Part shown: piece by piece, positions 1 to 57,119 of the stretch
How the letters are laid out: each line of letters begins with the position of its first letter
Numbering within the stretch: the first letter of the stretch is position 1
Origin: Muscardinus avellanarius
Lineage: Eukaryota > Chordata > Mammalia > Rodentia > Gliridae
Reading direction: 5' to 3'
Length of the DNA: 64,000 bases
Assembly (NCBI GenBank): GCA_963383645.1
Contig: OY726572.1
Location: forward strand, 23,691,292 to 23,755,291
The notes under the pieces: model-generated
What the model was told of the DNA's origin: nothing
The model's input: the letters and a program-made list of their open reading frames with translations, nothing else
The model's database searches: none
Translations under genes and position numbers: made by a program

Positions 1-2496
1 TGATGCAAGCTGGGGCTGGAATGGTTTCTAAATAGAAGAGTTTCTAAAGTGTTCTGCGAGGCAATGGCAATGGTGGTGGCAGCTGCTGTTTCAAAGGGTT
101 TGACTGACACTGGGAATTGCATATATTTTGAGTTGGGAGCGCTCAGAACAATCAGGAAAGACTCGATGGGATGGAGACATGAGAACAGGCTATGCTGCCT
201 CTATACCCTGGGGGTACACTGCCAACCCTTCCCCATTGCCCCAGATTCCAGAGGCTCAGGGAAGGGTCAGGTGAGGTGAAGGCTGGACACAGACAAAAGA
301 CCTAGGGGCTCAGACCCACCTGCATATAAGCTTCACTGTTTCAGCTGGTACCTGGTCGTGTGTCCTCATCTGAAACTCAGGCAAAGAGGAGGTTGCACCT
401 GATTCTGCTTATCCCCTTTCTGCTGGAGATAGGACAGGCTTTCTTAAGACCCTCAGGGTCTTTCTGGTTCAGTCACTCTTCCACCAAAGGTATAGATACT
501 ATGTCACTCTCCAGAGCCAGCTATGGCCCTGGTATTGAGTTCTAGTACTTATGGGTGGACCAGTCACTCTGAGACGAAGGACAAGTTTTAGCACAGAGCA
601 GGTGGACCACCCTGGGGCTGAGGGAAAGCAAGGTCCGTGCCAAGACTGTAAGGGCCAGGTGGTTCTAACAAGCATGAAAATTACTCCACTGCCTTTGCCC
701 TGAAGTTTTGACTCTGGTAGGGAAAAGAAGCAGAATCTCCATGATTAGAAAACTTTCACTGTCCTCTTGGTCGAGGAGAAGGCAAAGAGAGTGCTTAGGG
801 ATTCCTCCTGCCAGCTCACCAACCTGTGCAAGTGGCAGGTGAACCCTCTCTTTTATTAGCAGTGGAGACTTTGTTCCCTGCCCGTTAATAGGTCATACCT
901 GCTCAGCTCTTTCTTCAAAGTAGGCACTTCTGATTGCATGGGTTATTATTGCTTTTTTCTCATTTTTCTTGCCAGAGGGATTTGGGGCTTGTTGCTAAAA
1001 CAGACTTGGCTGGAGATTTTGGTTGGAGCCTAGCTTTGCATAAAGAATGCATCCACTCCTCTCGGTCAGCTTTTCAGAGAGGCCTGCTGAAAACGGGTCC
1101 AGGGGGATTCTGGGAGGTGGCCATTTGGGCAGTGGGCCAACTTTTCAGGGGCAGCTTTGGAACTGAGTGCCTCACAGACTCACCGGGCCGATCTCTGCCT
1201 AGAAAATGCAATGCCACCACCAAGCAGCTCAGAAAATGCACCATCTCATTCCAGCAACAGACTGTTAATGGACAGTGAATATAAGGCCTTATTTACCACC
1301 CATCCAGTCTTAGGGACCGACAAATCTATTTAAGTTCATTTAATGATTTTAAGTAGCTGGCCAAAAGATGTGTTTCCATGTGGATGGAGGGCATATCGAT
1401 GCTTTAGAGAGAGCAGGGAAGAATGGTGGGAGAGTGGTTAGGTATTTAATGGATGTGCACCATGCCTCCGATTCCTCCTTTGGCCAGTTATTGGGCTTGG
1501 AAGGAGGGAGTGTTCTGCATCCCTCTTTGCAGCTGGGACTTGTCTGGGATCTGGATGCTTAGGATAGAACTGGCAGATACTGCTGAGAAAATACACTTTC
1601 TCCAATTTCTCACTGCGTAGTTGATTTGCTTGGCAAGATTCTTCTAAAATGGCCTGTCACCAGGCTTGGGGCGTGGTATGCATTTATATTAGAATAACAT
1701 CGGTGATGAAAGAGCTCTTCTGTGTTGTTCCATTATCTGTGTAATTGACTTCAGCTATCGGCTCAGGGGGAGGGGCTGATGGACAGCTTTGGGTTCCTGG
1801 GACTAGCCCTGCCTTAGGTTTGACGTGGCCAAAGCTAGACATGTGTGTTCTGACTCTAGAGTCTTTGGCTCCTGCATAATAAAGCAGGACAAGCCATATT
1901 CAAGGTCAGATTCAAGAGTTGGGAACATCTCTTTTAGTCCCACTCTTAGAAGTCATTTAGCACCACCTGACTTGGTTTCCCCTCTGGGCATAATACAAAG
2001 AATAGTGAGGAAAAGTCAACACAGAGACTCCAGGGCTGCCAAGGGCCATGGAGATCTTTCACAATGAGTCTGGCTTTGAGCCCTTCTGGAAATAAGAGAG
2101 AAAACGAATTTTCAGTTAGTCTGAGCAAGCATGGAGAATCACTCGGACCTTTCCACATTCTAGGGTCAAGGCTTCTAAGCATTTTCTTTCTGTGTTCACT
2201 TTTGCAGCCTGAGACCAAAAGATCTCAGCCCTTTCATGTGCCTGGGCATGCCGTCAATTGGAAAAGCCCACACAAGAAAGGTCCAGACTACAGGGTGGGT
2301 GGAAGCCGTCTCTAGCGAGTTCCTGCGTTGCTCTTTCTTCCTCTCAGTCTGAGCCACATCTACTGCGTTCTAGTGGAGGTCCTGGGCAAAAGGGGAAGAG
2401 CAAAAGAAAGGGGCTTGCTTCCTGGAGACCTGGCCCAGCAGGATGGTGCCAATGCACAAAAATACCTGATCCACAGGCTCTGATGTGCCATGTCCC

Positions 2497-2588
2497 TGGG
2501 AAAGTGAGAGTGAGAGGAAGAGATGGAGTGTAGAGGAAGGAGAAAGAAGAAAAGGGGACAGAGAGAGAAAGAGGGAGAGGGAGATGGT
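2497..2588. repeat. Purine-rich low-complexity tract
   Basis: GAGAGGAAGAG-type sequence with few pyrimidines over about 90 bp. Confidence 0.8.
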
Positions 2589-3107
2589 ATCCTTTGGCTT
2601 GGAAAATTACATACATATTATGAAGACTCAAGTTCCTTGCCTCCCAGGCCATTTTCTGCCATCTGTTGGAGAACCCCCCAACCTGTTTAATCTCATCAAA
2701 TTTCATAATACTCTACACTGTTAGAGAAGCCAGATGAGCTCTTTGGGAGCTGGTGTAGATAATTCTAAGATCTAGAAAGTCCCACATCCATTCTTTCCAG
2801 AAACCAAGCCATCCATTCCTCATTTCTCAAGATGTTCACAGACCTCCAGCACAGGCCTCTCCTCTGCCTGTCTTTGTTCTGGCTTATGGCTCAGAGAGCT
2901 GAAATGGTTCTGGGGATGGCAGCCTCTATTGGTGAGAAGATCAAGGAAAAGGGTTGAGAGTTCCCTTCTCTCAACAGAAACATCTTTTTGAGGTTAAAGG
3001 AACATGAACCTCTTATGCTTGGGGTAGGAGTTGAGTTTTATAAAGTAGAAGGGAGCAAAGATGGCTATATGCTTGGTGGGACCCTGAACAAATCTCTGAA
3101 CCTGTAT

Positions 3108-3297
3108 TAACTTTTGGTACTAGAGATTGAACCCAGGGATATTTTATTGCTGAGCTATATCCCCCGCCTTTTAAGAATAATTTTTTTAAATTTTGAAAAG
3201 CGTCTTGCTGGGTTGCTGAGCTGGCCTTGACCCTGAGAGCCTCCTATTCCAGCCTCCCAAGTGCTTGGATTATAGGAGTGCATCATCACATTCAGCC
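3108..3297 (-). mobile_element. B1-ID dimeric SINE (MEN type)
   Basis: On the minus strand: a B1 head (antisense CAAGTGCTTGGATTATAGG) followed by the ID-like half (antisense TGGTACTAGAGATTGAACCC). A diverged, old copy. Confidence 0.85.
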
Positions 3298-16500: not shown

Positions 16501-17275
16501 CTACTTAGAATGGTAATCATCAAGAATGCAGACAATAATAAATGCTGGCAAGGATGTGGGAAATAGGAACCCTTATATACTGTTGGTGGGATTGTACAGC
16601 TTCCATGGAGATCAGTGTAGAGGTTTCTCAGGAAACTGGGAATGGAACTACCATACAACCCAGTGATAGCTTTCCTGGGTATCTTTCCAAAGAAATCGCA
16701 GTCAGAATATTAGAGTGATACATGCATATCCATGTTTATAGCAGCACAATTTACAATAGCCAAATGATGGAACCAGCCTAGGTGTCCATCAACAGATAAA
16801 TGGATGGCAAAACTGTGGTGGAGACACACAATGGGATTTCACTCAGCCATTAAGAAGAAAGAAATGTATCATTTTCAGGAAAATGGATAGAATTAGAGAA
16901 TGTTATGCTAAGTGAGATTAGCTAGTCTCAGAAAGTGAAGGGTTATATATTTTCTATCATTTGTGGAAGCTAGAGAAAAATCGGGAAACAAAAGGGATAA
17001 ATGAGGAGAGAGAGCCTCAGGAGGAGAGTGGAAAGGGATTCGGGGAAAGAGTGGGGAGAGGTAAAAGGAGACGTGATGAAGGAAACTATAAATAATGCTA
17101 TGTACATATATGGAGTTATCCATACTAATCTCAATAATATGCATAGAGACAGGGAGGTAGTAGGATGGGATCTGGAGGAAAACACACCACACGCTGTGTG
17201 CATGAATATTTCTATCACTCTGAACCTCGTTATGATATATAACTATGATATACCAATCAAAGTATATTAAAAAAG
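16501..17275 (+). mobile_element. L1 3' end (ORF2 tail and 3'UTR)
   Basis: Typical L1 ORF2 tail motifs on the plus strand: AATGCTGGCAAGGATGTGG, ACTGTTGGTGGGATTGTA, TTATAGCAGCACAATT and AGGTGTCCATCAACAGATAA. A purine-rich 3'UTR and an A-rich tail follow. Flanks AAAGAGTGGTCTT and AAAGAGTAGTTTT may be a decayed target-site duplication. Confidence 0.85.
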
Positions 17276-39600: not shown

Positions 39601-39689
39601 TATTATTTTTATTTTAATCTTTTTTTGCAGTACTGGGGATGGAACCCAGGGGCATTCTACCTCTGAGCTACACTCCCAGGCCTATTTTT
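39601..39689 (-). mobile_element. B1-ID SINE, ID half (split by the composite retroposon)
   Basis: Antisense ID half CAGTACTGGGGATGGAACCC to GAGCTACACTCCCAGGCC. The copy is interrupted here and resumes at 41287; the last 16 bases are the left target-site duplication. Confidence 0.92.
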
Positions 39690-41270
39690 TTTTTTTTTTG
39701 GCTTGAAACATGTTTTATTTATTTATTTTTTTTTAATTAATTTATTTTTTAAATTGGTGCATTGTAGTCATATATCAATCACATTGGAGTACAAGACTTG
39801 AGAGGATATACAAGCACACATCATCCAATTAGCCCTCCTCCAGCCCCCGTCCCATTCCCTCCCCCTCCCTCCATCCCACACTTCTTTGGTGATTTACTTT
39901 GATACATTTGTTTATGTACCTCCTGCATTTTAAAGAGGCTCCGTCCTCCAGTATTACATACCCTCTGATTGATCACATTAGTTGCTTCACTATAGGGCCC
40001 TTTCTATAGCTCAACCTCTTCCTGTTGCCCTTTTCCTCCTAGTTATTGCTGATTAAGAGAAGCATCTGATTTATATTTTCTGCGATATTTCTCTGTGCAT
40101 GCTGCGTTGCAAGTACCAATCCCACTCTTGATGGTCCCAGTAGTGGCCTGGCTACTCAGTGGACTGATCCAGACCTCGCTGGCTCACGCAGCGGCCTTGC
40201 CTCATGGGAGGACCCAGTTCTGGTCTCGCTGGCCCCTGAACCGGTCAAACCCCTAAGCTGGCTTTGGTCCCGACCTTGGAGGCCACAGGAGTGAACTTGC
40301 CTCACGCCAGGCTCCGATGCTGGCCATTGGCCCCTGCACCGGTCTAACCCCTTGGCAGGATTCCAATCCCGGCCTCGGAGGCCCCAACACTGGTAATGCC
40401 TCACGGCAGGCTCCGATGCCGGCCTCACTGGCCCCAGCACCGGCCTAACCCCTTGACAGGCTCTTATCCTGGCCTCAGAGGCCCCAGTACCGGCCTTGCC
40501 TCACGGCAGGCTCCGATGCCGGCCTCGCTGGCCCCAGCACCGGCCTAACCCCTCGGCAGGCTCTTATCCTGGCCTCGGAGGCCCCAGTACCGGCCTTGCC
40601 TCACGGCAGGCTCCGATGCCGGCCTCGCTGGCCCCAGCAGCGGCCTAACCCCTCGGCAGGCTCCGATCCCGGCCTCGGAGGCCCCGGCACTGGTCATGCC
40701 TCAAGGCAGGCTCCGATGCCGGCCTCGCTGGCCCCAGCACCGGCCTAGCCCCTTGGCAGGCTCTTATCCTGGCCTCGGAGGCCCCAGTACCGGCCTTGCC
40801 TCACGGCAGGCTCTGATGCCGGCCTCGCTGGCCCCAGCACCGGCCTAACCCCTCGGCATGCTCCGATCCCGGCCTCGGAGGCCCCAGGACTGGTCATGCC
40901 TCACGGCAGGCTCCGCTGCCGGCCTCGTTGGCCCCAGCACCGGCCTAACCTCTCGGCAAGCTCTTATCCTGGCCTCGGAGGCCCCAGTACCGGCCTTGCC
41001 TCACGGCAGGCTCCGATGCCGGCCTCGCTGGCCCCAGCACCGGCCTAACCCCTTGGCAGGCTCTTATCCTGGCCTAGAGGCCCCAGTACCGGCCTTGCCT
41101 CAAGGCAGGCTCCGATGCCGGCCTCGCTGGCCCCAGCACCGGCCTAACCCCTCAGCAGGCTCTTATCCTGGCCTCGGAGGCCCCAGTACCGGCCTTGCCT
41201 CACGGCAGGCTCCGATGCTGGCCTCACTGGCCCCAGCAGCGGCCTAACCCCTCGGCAGGCTCCGATCCCG
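39690..41270 (-). mobile_element. Composite retroposon: GC-rich 100-bp monomer array + unique module + poly(A)
   Basis: A 1.58-kb insertion inside a B1-ID SINE, flanked by a perfect 16-bp duplication TCCCAGGCCTATTTTT (39674-39689 and 41271-41286). On the minus strand it starts at once with GC-rich tandem monomers (41270 to about 40160). It continues with about 470 bp of non-coding sequence holding a G-rich tract, and ends in an A-rich 3' end and poly(A), seen as poly(T) from 39690. Poly(A) plus a target-site duplication shows L1-type retrotransposition. No ORF1, ORF2 or reverse transcriptase is visible. It could be an SVA-like non-autonomous element, or an internally deleted L1 that kept 5'-UTR monomers and its 3'UTR. 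I do not recognise it as a named family. Confidence 0.85.
40160..41270 (-). repeat. GC-rich VNTR, about 11 x 100 bp
   Basis: Tandem array with a 100-bp period. Monomers begin with GGCCTCGCTGG or a variant at 40221, 40321, 40421, 40521, 40621, 40721, 40821, 40921, 41021, 41120 and 41220. Each is made of two related halves of about 50 bp, one carrying GGCCTCGCTGGCCCC and the other GGCCTCGGAGGCCCC. The copies at 40160-40420 are the most diverged; those nearer 41270 are almost uniform. ORFs on both strands across the array are products of the repetition. Confidence 0.95.
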
Positions 41271-41410
41271 TCCCAGGCCTATTTTTATTCTTTATTTTGA
41301 AACAGGGTCTCACTGAGTTGCAAAGGGCCTCACTAAGTAGCTGAAGCTGGCTGCAAACCTGTGATCCTCCTGTCTCAGCCTCCCGAATGCTTGCACTACC
41401 ACGCCCAGCT
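41271..41410 (-). mobile_element. B1-ID SINE, B1 half (split by the composite retroposon)
   Basis: Continuation of the copy begun at 39601: the right target-site duplication, then GAAACAGGGTCTCACTGAGT, AGTAGCTGAAGCTGGCTGC and a B1 end at CCACGCCCAGC. The SINE is therefore older than the insertion. Confidence 0.92.
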
Positions 41411-41427: not shown

Positions 41428-41673
<246 letters not shown>

Positions 41674-42494: not shown

Positions 42495-43240
42495 AAGAAA
42501 GACACAGAAACCACCTCCATAAATTGTAATGGTGGCATGATTACTAGAATGGCTAAATTAGAAAGACATAATAATAAGTGTTGACACGGAGATGGCGAAA
42601 CTGGAGCCCTGGTGGGCATGCATGATGGTGCGGACATTTTGACAAGAGTTTGACAATTTCTCAAGATGTTAAATGTACTGTTACTATATGAGATGAGAAT
42701 TCTATTCCTAGATACATCCCCAAGAGAACGAAAAATGTATGTCCGCACAGAAACTTGTACATGAATAAATATTTGTAGCAGCATTAGTAACAGTAGCTCT
42801 GGACTGGAAGCAACCCAAATGCTAAGGAACTAATCAATGGATGAGAAAAATGTGGTCTATCTATATGATAGAAAATTATTCTGCAAAAAAAGGAATCAAA
42901 CATTGATACATGCCGCAATGTGGGCGAACCTCAAAGAGATTGTGAAAGAAATTAATCACAGAAGATCCATTATTGTATGGCTCCATTTATATAAAATGCC
43001 CAGAATAGTCATATCTATAGAAAATGGAAGGAAGATTAGTGGTTGATTAGGGCTAGGAATATTGGAAGACAAGGGGGAGAGATTCTCAAGAGTTCCTTTT
43101 GGAATGATAAAAATATCCTAACATTAGATTGTGATAATGCTTGTACAACCCTATAATTATACTAAGGAACATTTAATTTTGCACTTCAAGTCAGAGGCTA
43201 GTATGGTATATGGATTATATTTCAATAATGCCATGAATAA
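42495..43240 (+). mobile_element. Old L1 (L1M-type) 3' end
   Basis: Diverged L1 3' region on the plus strand. It has blocks such as GGAAGCAACCCAAATG, ATGGCTCCATTTATATAAA and GATTAGTGGTTGATTAGGG, and the ending GGTATATGGATTATATTTCA, as in mammalian L1M elements. Boundaries are approximate. Confidence 0.75.
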
Positions 43241-56145: not shown

Positions 56146-57119
56146 TTTACATTTTATTTTTCATTTAAAACATTTAAACAGTGCTTGGTGCCCTCTCCTC
56201 TTTTCCGTTCCCCCCTCCCAACAATGAATAAACAGGTTAACCAGGCTATATTCATACCTTTACACATATTCTGAATAAGCTCCTCCATTAATCAACCTCA
56301 GCCTTCTTTCTCTCCTACCCTTCCATTCTAGCTTTGCTGAGTTTTCTCCTCCATTATCTGGAGTCCTTCTGGTATCCCCAGTGCTCCCTAGTTTGGGCAT
56401 ATTAAAGAAAACACATGTCCCTTCTTTTTTTGTGTTTGGTTGGTCTCACTTAACATAGTGTTCTCCAGATCTTCCCATCTTCTTGTGGATGCTATGATTT
56501 TGTTCTTCTTTATAGCTGAGTAGAATTCCATTGTGTGTATTTCCCATAATTTTGCAATCCATTAATCTGTTGATGAGGACCTAGGTTGGTTCCATAGTTC
56601 AGCTATTATGAATTGTGCTTCTATGAACATGGGTATGCATATGTTACTGTAGTTCTCTGATTTCAACCCCTTTGGAAAAATACCCACAAGTGGTAGAGCT
56701 GGATCATATGGTGGATCTATTCCCAGTTTTCTAAGGAATCTCCACACTTATCTCCATAGTGGCTGAACTACTCTGCACTCCCACCAAAAGTGTAAAAGAG
56801 TTCCTCTTTCCCCACATCCTTGCCAGCATTTGTTGTTATTTGACTTCTTTATGCTTGCCACTCTGATTGGGGTTAGATGGAATCTCAGTGTAGTTTTGAT
56901 TTGCATCTCCCTGATGGCTACTGATGTAGAACATCTTTTTTATGCATCTATTGGCCATTTGTATTTCTTCTTTTGTGAAGTGTCTATTCAGTTCAGTTGC
57001 CCATTTCTTGATTGGGTTGTTTATTTTGCTATTGTGGAGTCTTTTGAGCTCTTTGTATATTCAGGATATTTGCCCTCTATCAGAGTGGTGGCTGGTAAAG
57101 ATCTCCCATTCTTTAGCCT
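56146..57119 (-). mobile_element. 5'-truncated L1 with target-site duplication
   Basis: A minus-strand LINE-1 of 974 bp covering the end of ORF2 and the 3'UTR. It is flanked by a perfect 14-bp duplication CCTAATGGCTTTCT (56132-56145 and 57120-57133). Recognisable blocks include the antisense of the conserved ORF2 end, such as CCTTGCCAGCATTTGTTG and TTGATTTGCATCTCCCTGAT. The rest of the element is missing, so it cannot move by itself. Confidence 0.9.

What the first reader, a model, noticed from the sequence alone, without database searches (positions are those of the whole stretch)
39690..41270. SVA-like composite retroposon: 100-bp GC-rich monomers plus unique 3' module, inserted by target-primed reverse transcription
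Seen directly: a 1.58-kb block flanked by perfect 16-bp duplications of SINE sequence, with poly(A) at one end and about eleven 100-bp monomers at the other, and no ORF. Established: L1-driven insertion gives poly(A) and such duplications; rodent L1 5'UTRs are monomer arrays (often about 200 bp); ape SVA elements carry a GC-rich VNTR. Inference: this is either an unnamed non-autonomous family that works like SVA, or an L1 deleted from the 5' monomers to the 3'UTR. The array reaches right to the 5' end, and the monomers nearest that end are the most uniform, as in active monomer promoters. I do not recognise a named squirrel family.
Basis: partly seen in the sequence, partly recalled or inferred. 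Interest (0 to 1): 0.8.

Follow-up and report, generated by a model that had tools for sequence, protein, structure and literature searches.

The report
Squirrel SVA-like VNTR composite retroposon family
A rodent genome, probably a squirrel's, holds thousands of young jumping-DNA copies assembled from two different tandem-repeat blocks and the tail of a LINE-1; they look like an independent counterpart of the SVA elements known from apes.

Summary
In detail: window 39690-41270 is a retroposed insertion (minus strand) with a perfect 16-bp target-site duplication inside a SINE, a poly(A) tail, a 3' module and a GC-rich array of 50/100-bp units.

It is not a one-off. The array|module junction occurs 5,693 times in the window's genome (<=2 mismatches; reversed control 0), and all 40 scored module matches have it. 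The window copy is 5'-truncated: longer copies add a 476-bp unit and, 5' of it, a second, unrelated array of 125-bp units. The 476-bp|array junction occurs 2,840 times. Long copies read [125-bp array]-[476 bp]-[50/100-bp VNTR]-[3' module]-poly(A), 4.4 to at least 9.7 kb.

The 3' module is an L1 3' end (ORF2 tail plus 3'UTR) of another, older L1 lineage. The two young L1 loci read share none of the other parts, and 20 of 20 inspected 125-bp arrays lead into the composite, not ORF1. The best module copies are 99-100% identical.

So this is a young, non-autonomous, L1-type composite organised like SVA/LAVA, but not an SVA by descent: no hexamer array, no resident-SINE part. Papers seen in passages call VNTR composites hominoid-specific. 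Expression and mobility are untested.

The parts
41271..41286 (-). target-site duplication, copy at the element's 5' side
   Evidence: 16 of 16 identical to 39674-39689
40173..41270 (-). 5'-truncated VNTR: 50-bp half units in pairs (100-bp unit), GC 0.70, CpG o/e 0.58
   Evidence: TRF, offset identities and composition, half-unit order
39713..40172 (-). 3' module: L1-derived 3' end (last ORF2 codons plus 3'UTR) of an older L1 lineage, ending in an A-rich stretch with AATAAA
   Evidence: 64% identity over module positions 55-450 of 458 to an old L1 in the flank of L027, starting about 25 codons before the end of its ORF2 match; 99-100% identical in the 40 scored genome matches
39700..39712 (-). 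13 nt between the A-rich end of the module and the poly(A), missing from the other scored matches or nearly so: probable short 3' transduction
   Evidence: the other 39 matches begin at query position 11-18; tails compared
39690..39699 (-). poly(A) outside the TSD (T10 on the plus strand; T15 with the 5 shared bases at 39685-39689)
   Evidence: sequence
39674..39689 (-). target-site duplication, copy at the element's 3' side
39615..39689 (+). first half of the SINE that holds the insertion
   Evidence: empty-site BLAST: 18 of 26 hits span the join
41287..41399 (+). second half of the same SINE

Best explanation
The block is one 5'-truncated copy of a young, high-copy, non-autonomous non-LTR composite retroposon that works like SVA/LAVA. 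Shown: long copies read 125-bp GC-rich array, 476-bp unit, 50/100-bp VNTR, L1-derived 3' end, A-rich tail; most assessable copies have target-site duplications that begin at A-rich sites; some are 5'-truncated and some carry extra sequence 3' of the module. Inferred: RNA polymerase II transcribes it, probably from the CpG-rich 125-bp array; the RNA ends in the A-rich L1-derived tail; L1 proteins supplied in trans insert it by target-primed reverse transcription; the VNTR grows and shrinks in 50-bp steps at DNA level and may, as reported for SVA and LAVA, affect mobilisation.
For: Junction shared by 40 of 40 scored module matches and 5,693 places. 5' junction 2,840 places. From the 125-bp array alone, 20 of 20 inspected loci run into the 476-bp unit and the VNTR start. 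TSDs in 13 of 17 assessable copies above a mismatched-flank control; 12 of these 13 start with or within 2 nt of a run of >=3 A. Extra non-A sequence between A tracts in 6 of 21 copies. 13 of 13 complete VNTRs begin with the same units and 21 of 21 end with the same units, with a variable centre. No ORF1 match at E<=10 and no ORF2 match below E 1 in the L018 copy. A young L1 is present: 150 scored ORF1 hits of 38,950 candidates, most with one and the same score and a 329-aa open frame, and a locus with both ORFs open. 15 of 21 modules have no difference from the majority.
Against: No expression, methylation or empty-site data in relatives. Mobilisation by L1 is inferred from TSDs and tails, not tested; the module is not the 3'UTR of the young L1. 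TSDs were weak in L010, L014, L024 and L026, and one mismatched control pair reached 15.0. 9 of 28 listed 5' junctions on contig 1 had no exact 3' junction within 15 kb in the listing. Copies read in full are the best hits, biased to young ones. Origins of the 125-bp, 476-bp and 50/100-bp parts are unknown.
Confidence: 0.88

Rival explanations
1. Derivative of an L1 lineage not yet seen: the 125-bp array plus 476-bp unit are the monomers and tether of that L1's 5'UTR, the module is its 3' end, and the ORFs were replaced by a VNTR. It would still amplify in trans as a family, but its two ends would come from one L1.
For: Array plus single-copy stretch at the 5' end resembles monomers plus tether of mouse L1 (PMC9022269 passages); the 5' ends of copies fall at different points of the 125-bp array; the 3' module is an L1 3' end.
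Against: 20 of 20 inspected 125-bp arrays lead to the composite, none to ORF1. No match of the 476-bp or 125-bp unit to the L1 loci, window or flanks held (nhmmer E<=0.1). The two young L1 loci have a 5'UTR of about 1.7 kb without these monomers. Only the best array hits were inspected, so an older L1 lineage could have been missed.
Confidence: 0.2
2. One-off internally deleted L1 whose 5' monomers sit beside its 3'UTR by chance.
For: L1-like 3' end, poly(A) and TSD at this locus.
Against: The same junction in 40 of 40 scored module matches and 5,693 pattern matches.
Confidence: 0.01
3. Satellite or segmental duplication: the array spread at DNA level with neighbouring sequence.
For: The VNTR does change in 50-bp steps: 17 of 19 junction-to-junction distances lie 1-15 bp above a multiple of 50.
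Against: Different TSDs at 13 of 17 assessable loci, A-rich tails, 5' truncation at different points, and a SINE split at the window site.
Confidence: 0.03

Closest known systems
SVA (SINE-R-VNTR-Alu), great apes
   Same: Non-autonomous composite; GC-rich central VNTR with fixed ends and variable centre (compare with PMC4432496 passages); poly(A), TSDs, 5' truncation, extra 3' sequence; thousands of copies (human: about 2,700 in PMC4982230; 5,107 reference copies, 38% full length in PMC10681720; passages).
   Different: No TCTCCC hexamer array, no similarity to the resident SINE, L1-derived 3' end instead of a retrovirus-derived SINE-R; an additional 5' array of 125-bp units.
LAVA (L1-Alu-VNTR-Alu), gibbons
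   Same: VNTR followed by a 3' domain that contains L1 sequence (PMC7353768 passages).
   Different: No 5' hexamers or resident-SINE-like region; here the 3' domain is an L1 3' end running from the last ORF2 codons to the tail.
Mouse-type L1 5'UTR (monomers plus tether)
   Same: GC-rich 5' array followed by a single-copy stretch, with 5' ends at varying points of the array (PMC9022269 passages).
   Different: Followed by a VNTR instead of ORF1 in 20 of 20 loci inspected; 125-bp units.
HAL1 (half-L1; definition recalled)
   Same: L1-related, non-autonomous, L1 3' end.
   Different: HAL1 keeps ORF1; the L018 copy has no ORF1 match at E<=10.

Membership tests
Hominoid VNTR composites (SVA/LAVA/PVA/FVA), by descent | 5' TCTCCC hexamer array | tested here: not met
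   TCTCCC, CCCTCT and GGGAGA 0 times, AGAGGG 2 times, no tandem run in L018
Hominoid VNTR composites (SVA/LAVA/PVA/FVA), by descent | Alu-like region 5' of the VNTR | tested here: inconclusive
   No similarity of the resident SINE to the L018 element at E<=0.01; Alu itself was not compared
Hominoid VNTR composites (SVA/LAVA/PVA/FVA), by descent | Retrovirus-derived SINE-R (SVA) or Alu/L1-fragment (LAVA) 3' end | tested here: not met
   The 3' module aligns to an old rodent L1 3' end from the ORF2 tail on; SINE-R itself was not compared
VNTR composite retroposon, as a kind of organisation | Central GC-rich VNTR with ordered, fixed ends and variable centre | tested here: met
   13 of 13 complete arrays begin [57]bAbA and 21 of 21 arrays end bA[21][29]; end blocks 98.7-98.9% identical, inner blocks 86-97%
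VNTR composite retroposon, as a kind of organisation | TSDs and A-rich tail | tested here: met
   13 of 17 assessable copies above the mismatched-flank control; tails
VNTR composite retroposon, as a kind of organisation | No own protein; mobilised by L1 in trans | tested here: inconclusive
   No ORF1 match at E<=10 and no ORF2 match below E 1; mobilisation cannot be tested with these tools
Autonomous L1 | ORF1 and ORF2 between 5'UTR and 3'UTR | tested here: not met
   VNTR directly at the module in 40 of 40 scored matches
HAL1-type half-L1 | ORF1 retained (definition recalled) | tested here: not met
   no ORF1 match at E<=10 in L018

The most novel reading that the evidence does not exclude
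SVA-type VNTR composites arose a second time, independently, in rodents: a currently or very recently mobile family of several thousand copies that combines its own monomeric promoter (125-bp array), a separate VNTR (50/100-bp array) that helps it use L1 proteins, and a borrowed L1 tail. The VNTR design would then be a convergent way to exploit L1 rather than a quirk of ape history.
Probability: 0.6. Interest if true: 0.82.

Novelty: new variant of a known kind. Interest (0 to 1): 0.72.

Why it matters
Two papers state that VNTR composite retrotransposons are specific to hominoid primates (PMC4432496, PMC7353768; passages), and passages of the same papers treat how the VNTR affects mobilisation as partly unsettled. 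An unrelated family with the same design and thousands of copies would be an independent replicate: shared features (ordered VNTR ends, GC-rich units) can be separated from accidents of ape ancestry. Inserts of 4 to almost 10 kb, CpG-rich and in such numbers, would also be a sizeable source of recent structural variation in the species.

Tried and rejected
Rejected: one-off deleted L1; VNTR as the 5'UTR of the young L1. The 476-bp unit as a known gene found no support: no Pfam match above cut-off (PF22938 at E 0.06, 13.9 bits against a cut-off of 27), none in PDB and none in two searches of the large protein set; its longest stop-free frame is 99 codons in 11 of 13 copies. Led nowhere: Rfam on the window at gathering scores (0 matches); a 22-nt monomer pattern in IMG/VR (0). 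Ten answered paper searches listed no title or abstract start that describes such a family; I looked at the listings, and at passages of nine papers. The library lacks most subscription journals, and Repbase/Dfam could not be checked. Not obtained, because the machine did not answer: the 125-bp|476-bp junction count, the VNTR-only search, the source of the window's 13-nt 3' extra sequence and the count of the 476-bp unit without the VNTR.

Full report
WHAT IS THERE. The element lies on the minus strand. Read 5' to 3' it has: TSD AAAAATAGGCCTGGGA (41286-41271), 1,098 bp of GC-rich tandem repeats (41270-40173), a 460-bp module (40172-39713), 13 nt (39712-39700), poly(A) and the second TSD copy (39689-39674). 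The flanks joined at the TSD form a SINE: 18 of 26 BLAST hits to the rest of the window run across the join. The repeat is a 100-bp unit of two related 50-bp halves; identity is 0.67 at offset 50 and 0.74 at offset 100, against 0.20-0.40 one or two bases away. CpG o/e is 0.58 in the array and 0.22 in the whole window.

IT IS A FAMILY. A search of the window's own 2.5-Gb genome with the module scored 40 matches of 1,831 candidates, all 99-100% identical. I fetched 20 of the other 39 with up to 10 kb of context and 300 bp beside the remaining 19: 20 of 20 and 19 of 19 have the array at the module at the same point. With the window copy that is 40 of 40. These are the best hits and so biased to young copies. 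A pattern across the junction is found 5,693 times at <=2 mismatches, 0 for the reversed pattern.

THE WINDOW COPY IS TRUNCATED. In 13 of the 21 copies read at length (20 plus the window) the array has a fixed 5' start, preceded by a shared 476-bp unit and, 5' of that, a second GC-rich array with a 125-bp unit. A pattern across the 476-bp|array junction is found 2,840 times at <=2 mismatches, reversed control 0, so roughly half the copies reach it; the two patterns differ in length (24 and 29 nt), so the ratio is approximate. The 13 copies are 4.4-9.7 kb long; L025 runs off the fetched piece, so its length is a lower bound. Starting from the 125-bp array alone, I took 640 bp downstream of 20 loci (from the top of the list, leaving out the query's own locus and further rows in the same arrays): 20 of 20 lead to the 476-bp unit (98.5-100% identity) and then to the start of the 100-bp array. 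On the first 73.7 Mb of contig 1, 19 of 28 listed exact 5' junctions have a listed exact 3' junction downstream on the same strand within 15 kb (1.3-6.4 kb, median 3.46 kb), against 2 of 112 after shifting; 9 have none in the listing, which shows exact matches only.

VNTR ORGANISATION. Split into half units, 13 of 13 complete arrays (2.70-7.75 kb) begin with the same units and 21 of 21 arrays end with the same units, with a variable centre. The outermost 200 bp at the two ends are on average 98.7% and 98.9% identical between the 13 copies, and 86-97% in the blocks further in. In four copies profiled, interior units are 88-100% like another unit, while the last two units (and in the two complete copies also the first five) reach only 55-93%. 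Two 3' unit orders recur: one in L010, L014, L015, L022 and L027, another in the window copy, L012, L013, L018, L024 and L028, which suggests sub-lineages. In 17 of 19 cases the junction-to-junction distance lies 1-15 bp above a multiple of 50. This resembles the organisation described for SVA and LAVA (PMC4432496 passages).

ORIGIN OF THE PARTS. The 3' module is an L1 3' end. Positions 55-450 of 458 align at 64% to an old L1 in the flank of L027, from about 25 codons before the end of its ORF2 match through the 3'UTR to the tail. Two places in the window match its last part at 71% and 62%; the second directly follows an ORF2 C-terminus. It is not the 3'UTR of the young L1. The 476-bp, 125-bp and 50/100-bp units gave no match among the sequences held outside the family (nhmmer E<=0.1), the 476-bp unit's frames gave none in the protein sets, and the two arrays do not match each other.

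HOW IT MOVES. TSDs score >=12.5 in 13 of 17 assessable copies against a mismatched-flank mean of 6.7, 95th percentile 8.8, maximum 15.0; L010, L014, L024 and L026 scored low, and four further copies were not in that test (L013, L022, L023, L025: flank cut short, although L013 shows a 16-bp repeat). In 12 of the 13 the TSD starts with or within 2 nt of a run of at least 3 A, as expected of L1 endonuclease (consensus recalled). 6 of 21 copies, the window included, have non-A sequence between A tracts 3' of the module, and 6 of 21 share a TTACC extension. This is retroposition through RNA; that L1 is the agent is inference. A candidate helper is present: the ORF1 family search scored 150 hits of 38,950 candidates, most with the same score and a 329-aa open frame, and two loci assembled from overlapping pieces are 99.2% identical over 6.8 kb, one with both ORFs open. 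Transcription from the 125-bp array is inferred from its place and composition (GC about 0.71, CpG o/e about 0.7 in five copies) and the analogy to mouse L1 monomers (PMC9022269 passages).

AGE. 15 of 21 modules have no difference from the majority over 420 bp; mean pairwise difference is 0.2% for modules and 0.6% for 13 copies of the 476-bp unit. Even with the selection bias this points to very recent activity of at least part of the family. One review notes LINE/SINE quiescence in a ground squirrel (PMC5857283 passage, citing Platt and Ray 2012, not seen); the genome here holds young L1s.

WHAT IS KNOWN. Passages of PMC4432496 and PMC7353768 state that VNTR composites are specific to hominoid primates and that the VNTR matters for mobilisation. 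Ten answered paper searches listed no similar family outside primates; this is an absence in those listings only. The family fails SVA membership by descent (no hexamer array) but meets the organisational features.

VERDICT. A real, multi-copy, young, SVA-like VNTR composite retroposon family, of which the window holds a 5'-truncated member. The main open point is whether its 5' half descends from an unseen L1 promoter or from unrelated sequence.

Noticed in passing
L033:360-3117; L035 (reverse complement) 354-3176; 5' flank of L019: Three loci share an ORF1 (305 aa from ATG in L033, 266 aa in L035, no long frame in L019; 57-60% aa identity to the young L1 ORF1), then an ORF2 piece on the opposite strand, then an L1 tail 69-74% like the composite's module; 92-95% identical to each other. 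It looks like a HAL1-like half-L1 family with an inverted ORF2 fragment.
   Followed up: partly
L029 (C1:6710729): A composite copy lies close to an L1 ORF1 on the opposite strand, so this locus turned up in the ORF1 search without being an L1 that carries the array.
   Followed up: partly
window 16504-16970, 41467-41670, 42769-42891, 56391-57111: L1 ORF2 fragments of different ages (27-83% aa identity to the young L1); the one at 41467-41670 lies just beside the SINE that holds the insertion.
   Followed up: no
L013, L018, L019, L020, L024, L028: Six copies share a TTACC extension before the final A tract, a possible mark of a sub-lineage or an inherited 3' transduction.
   Followed up: no
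genome-wide, ORF1 hits: Most of the 150 scored L1 ORF1 hits have one identical score and a 329-aa open frame, a sign of very recent L1 activity in this genome.
   Followed up: partly
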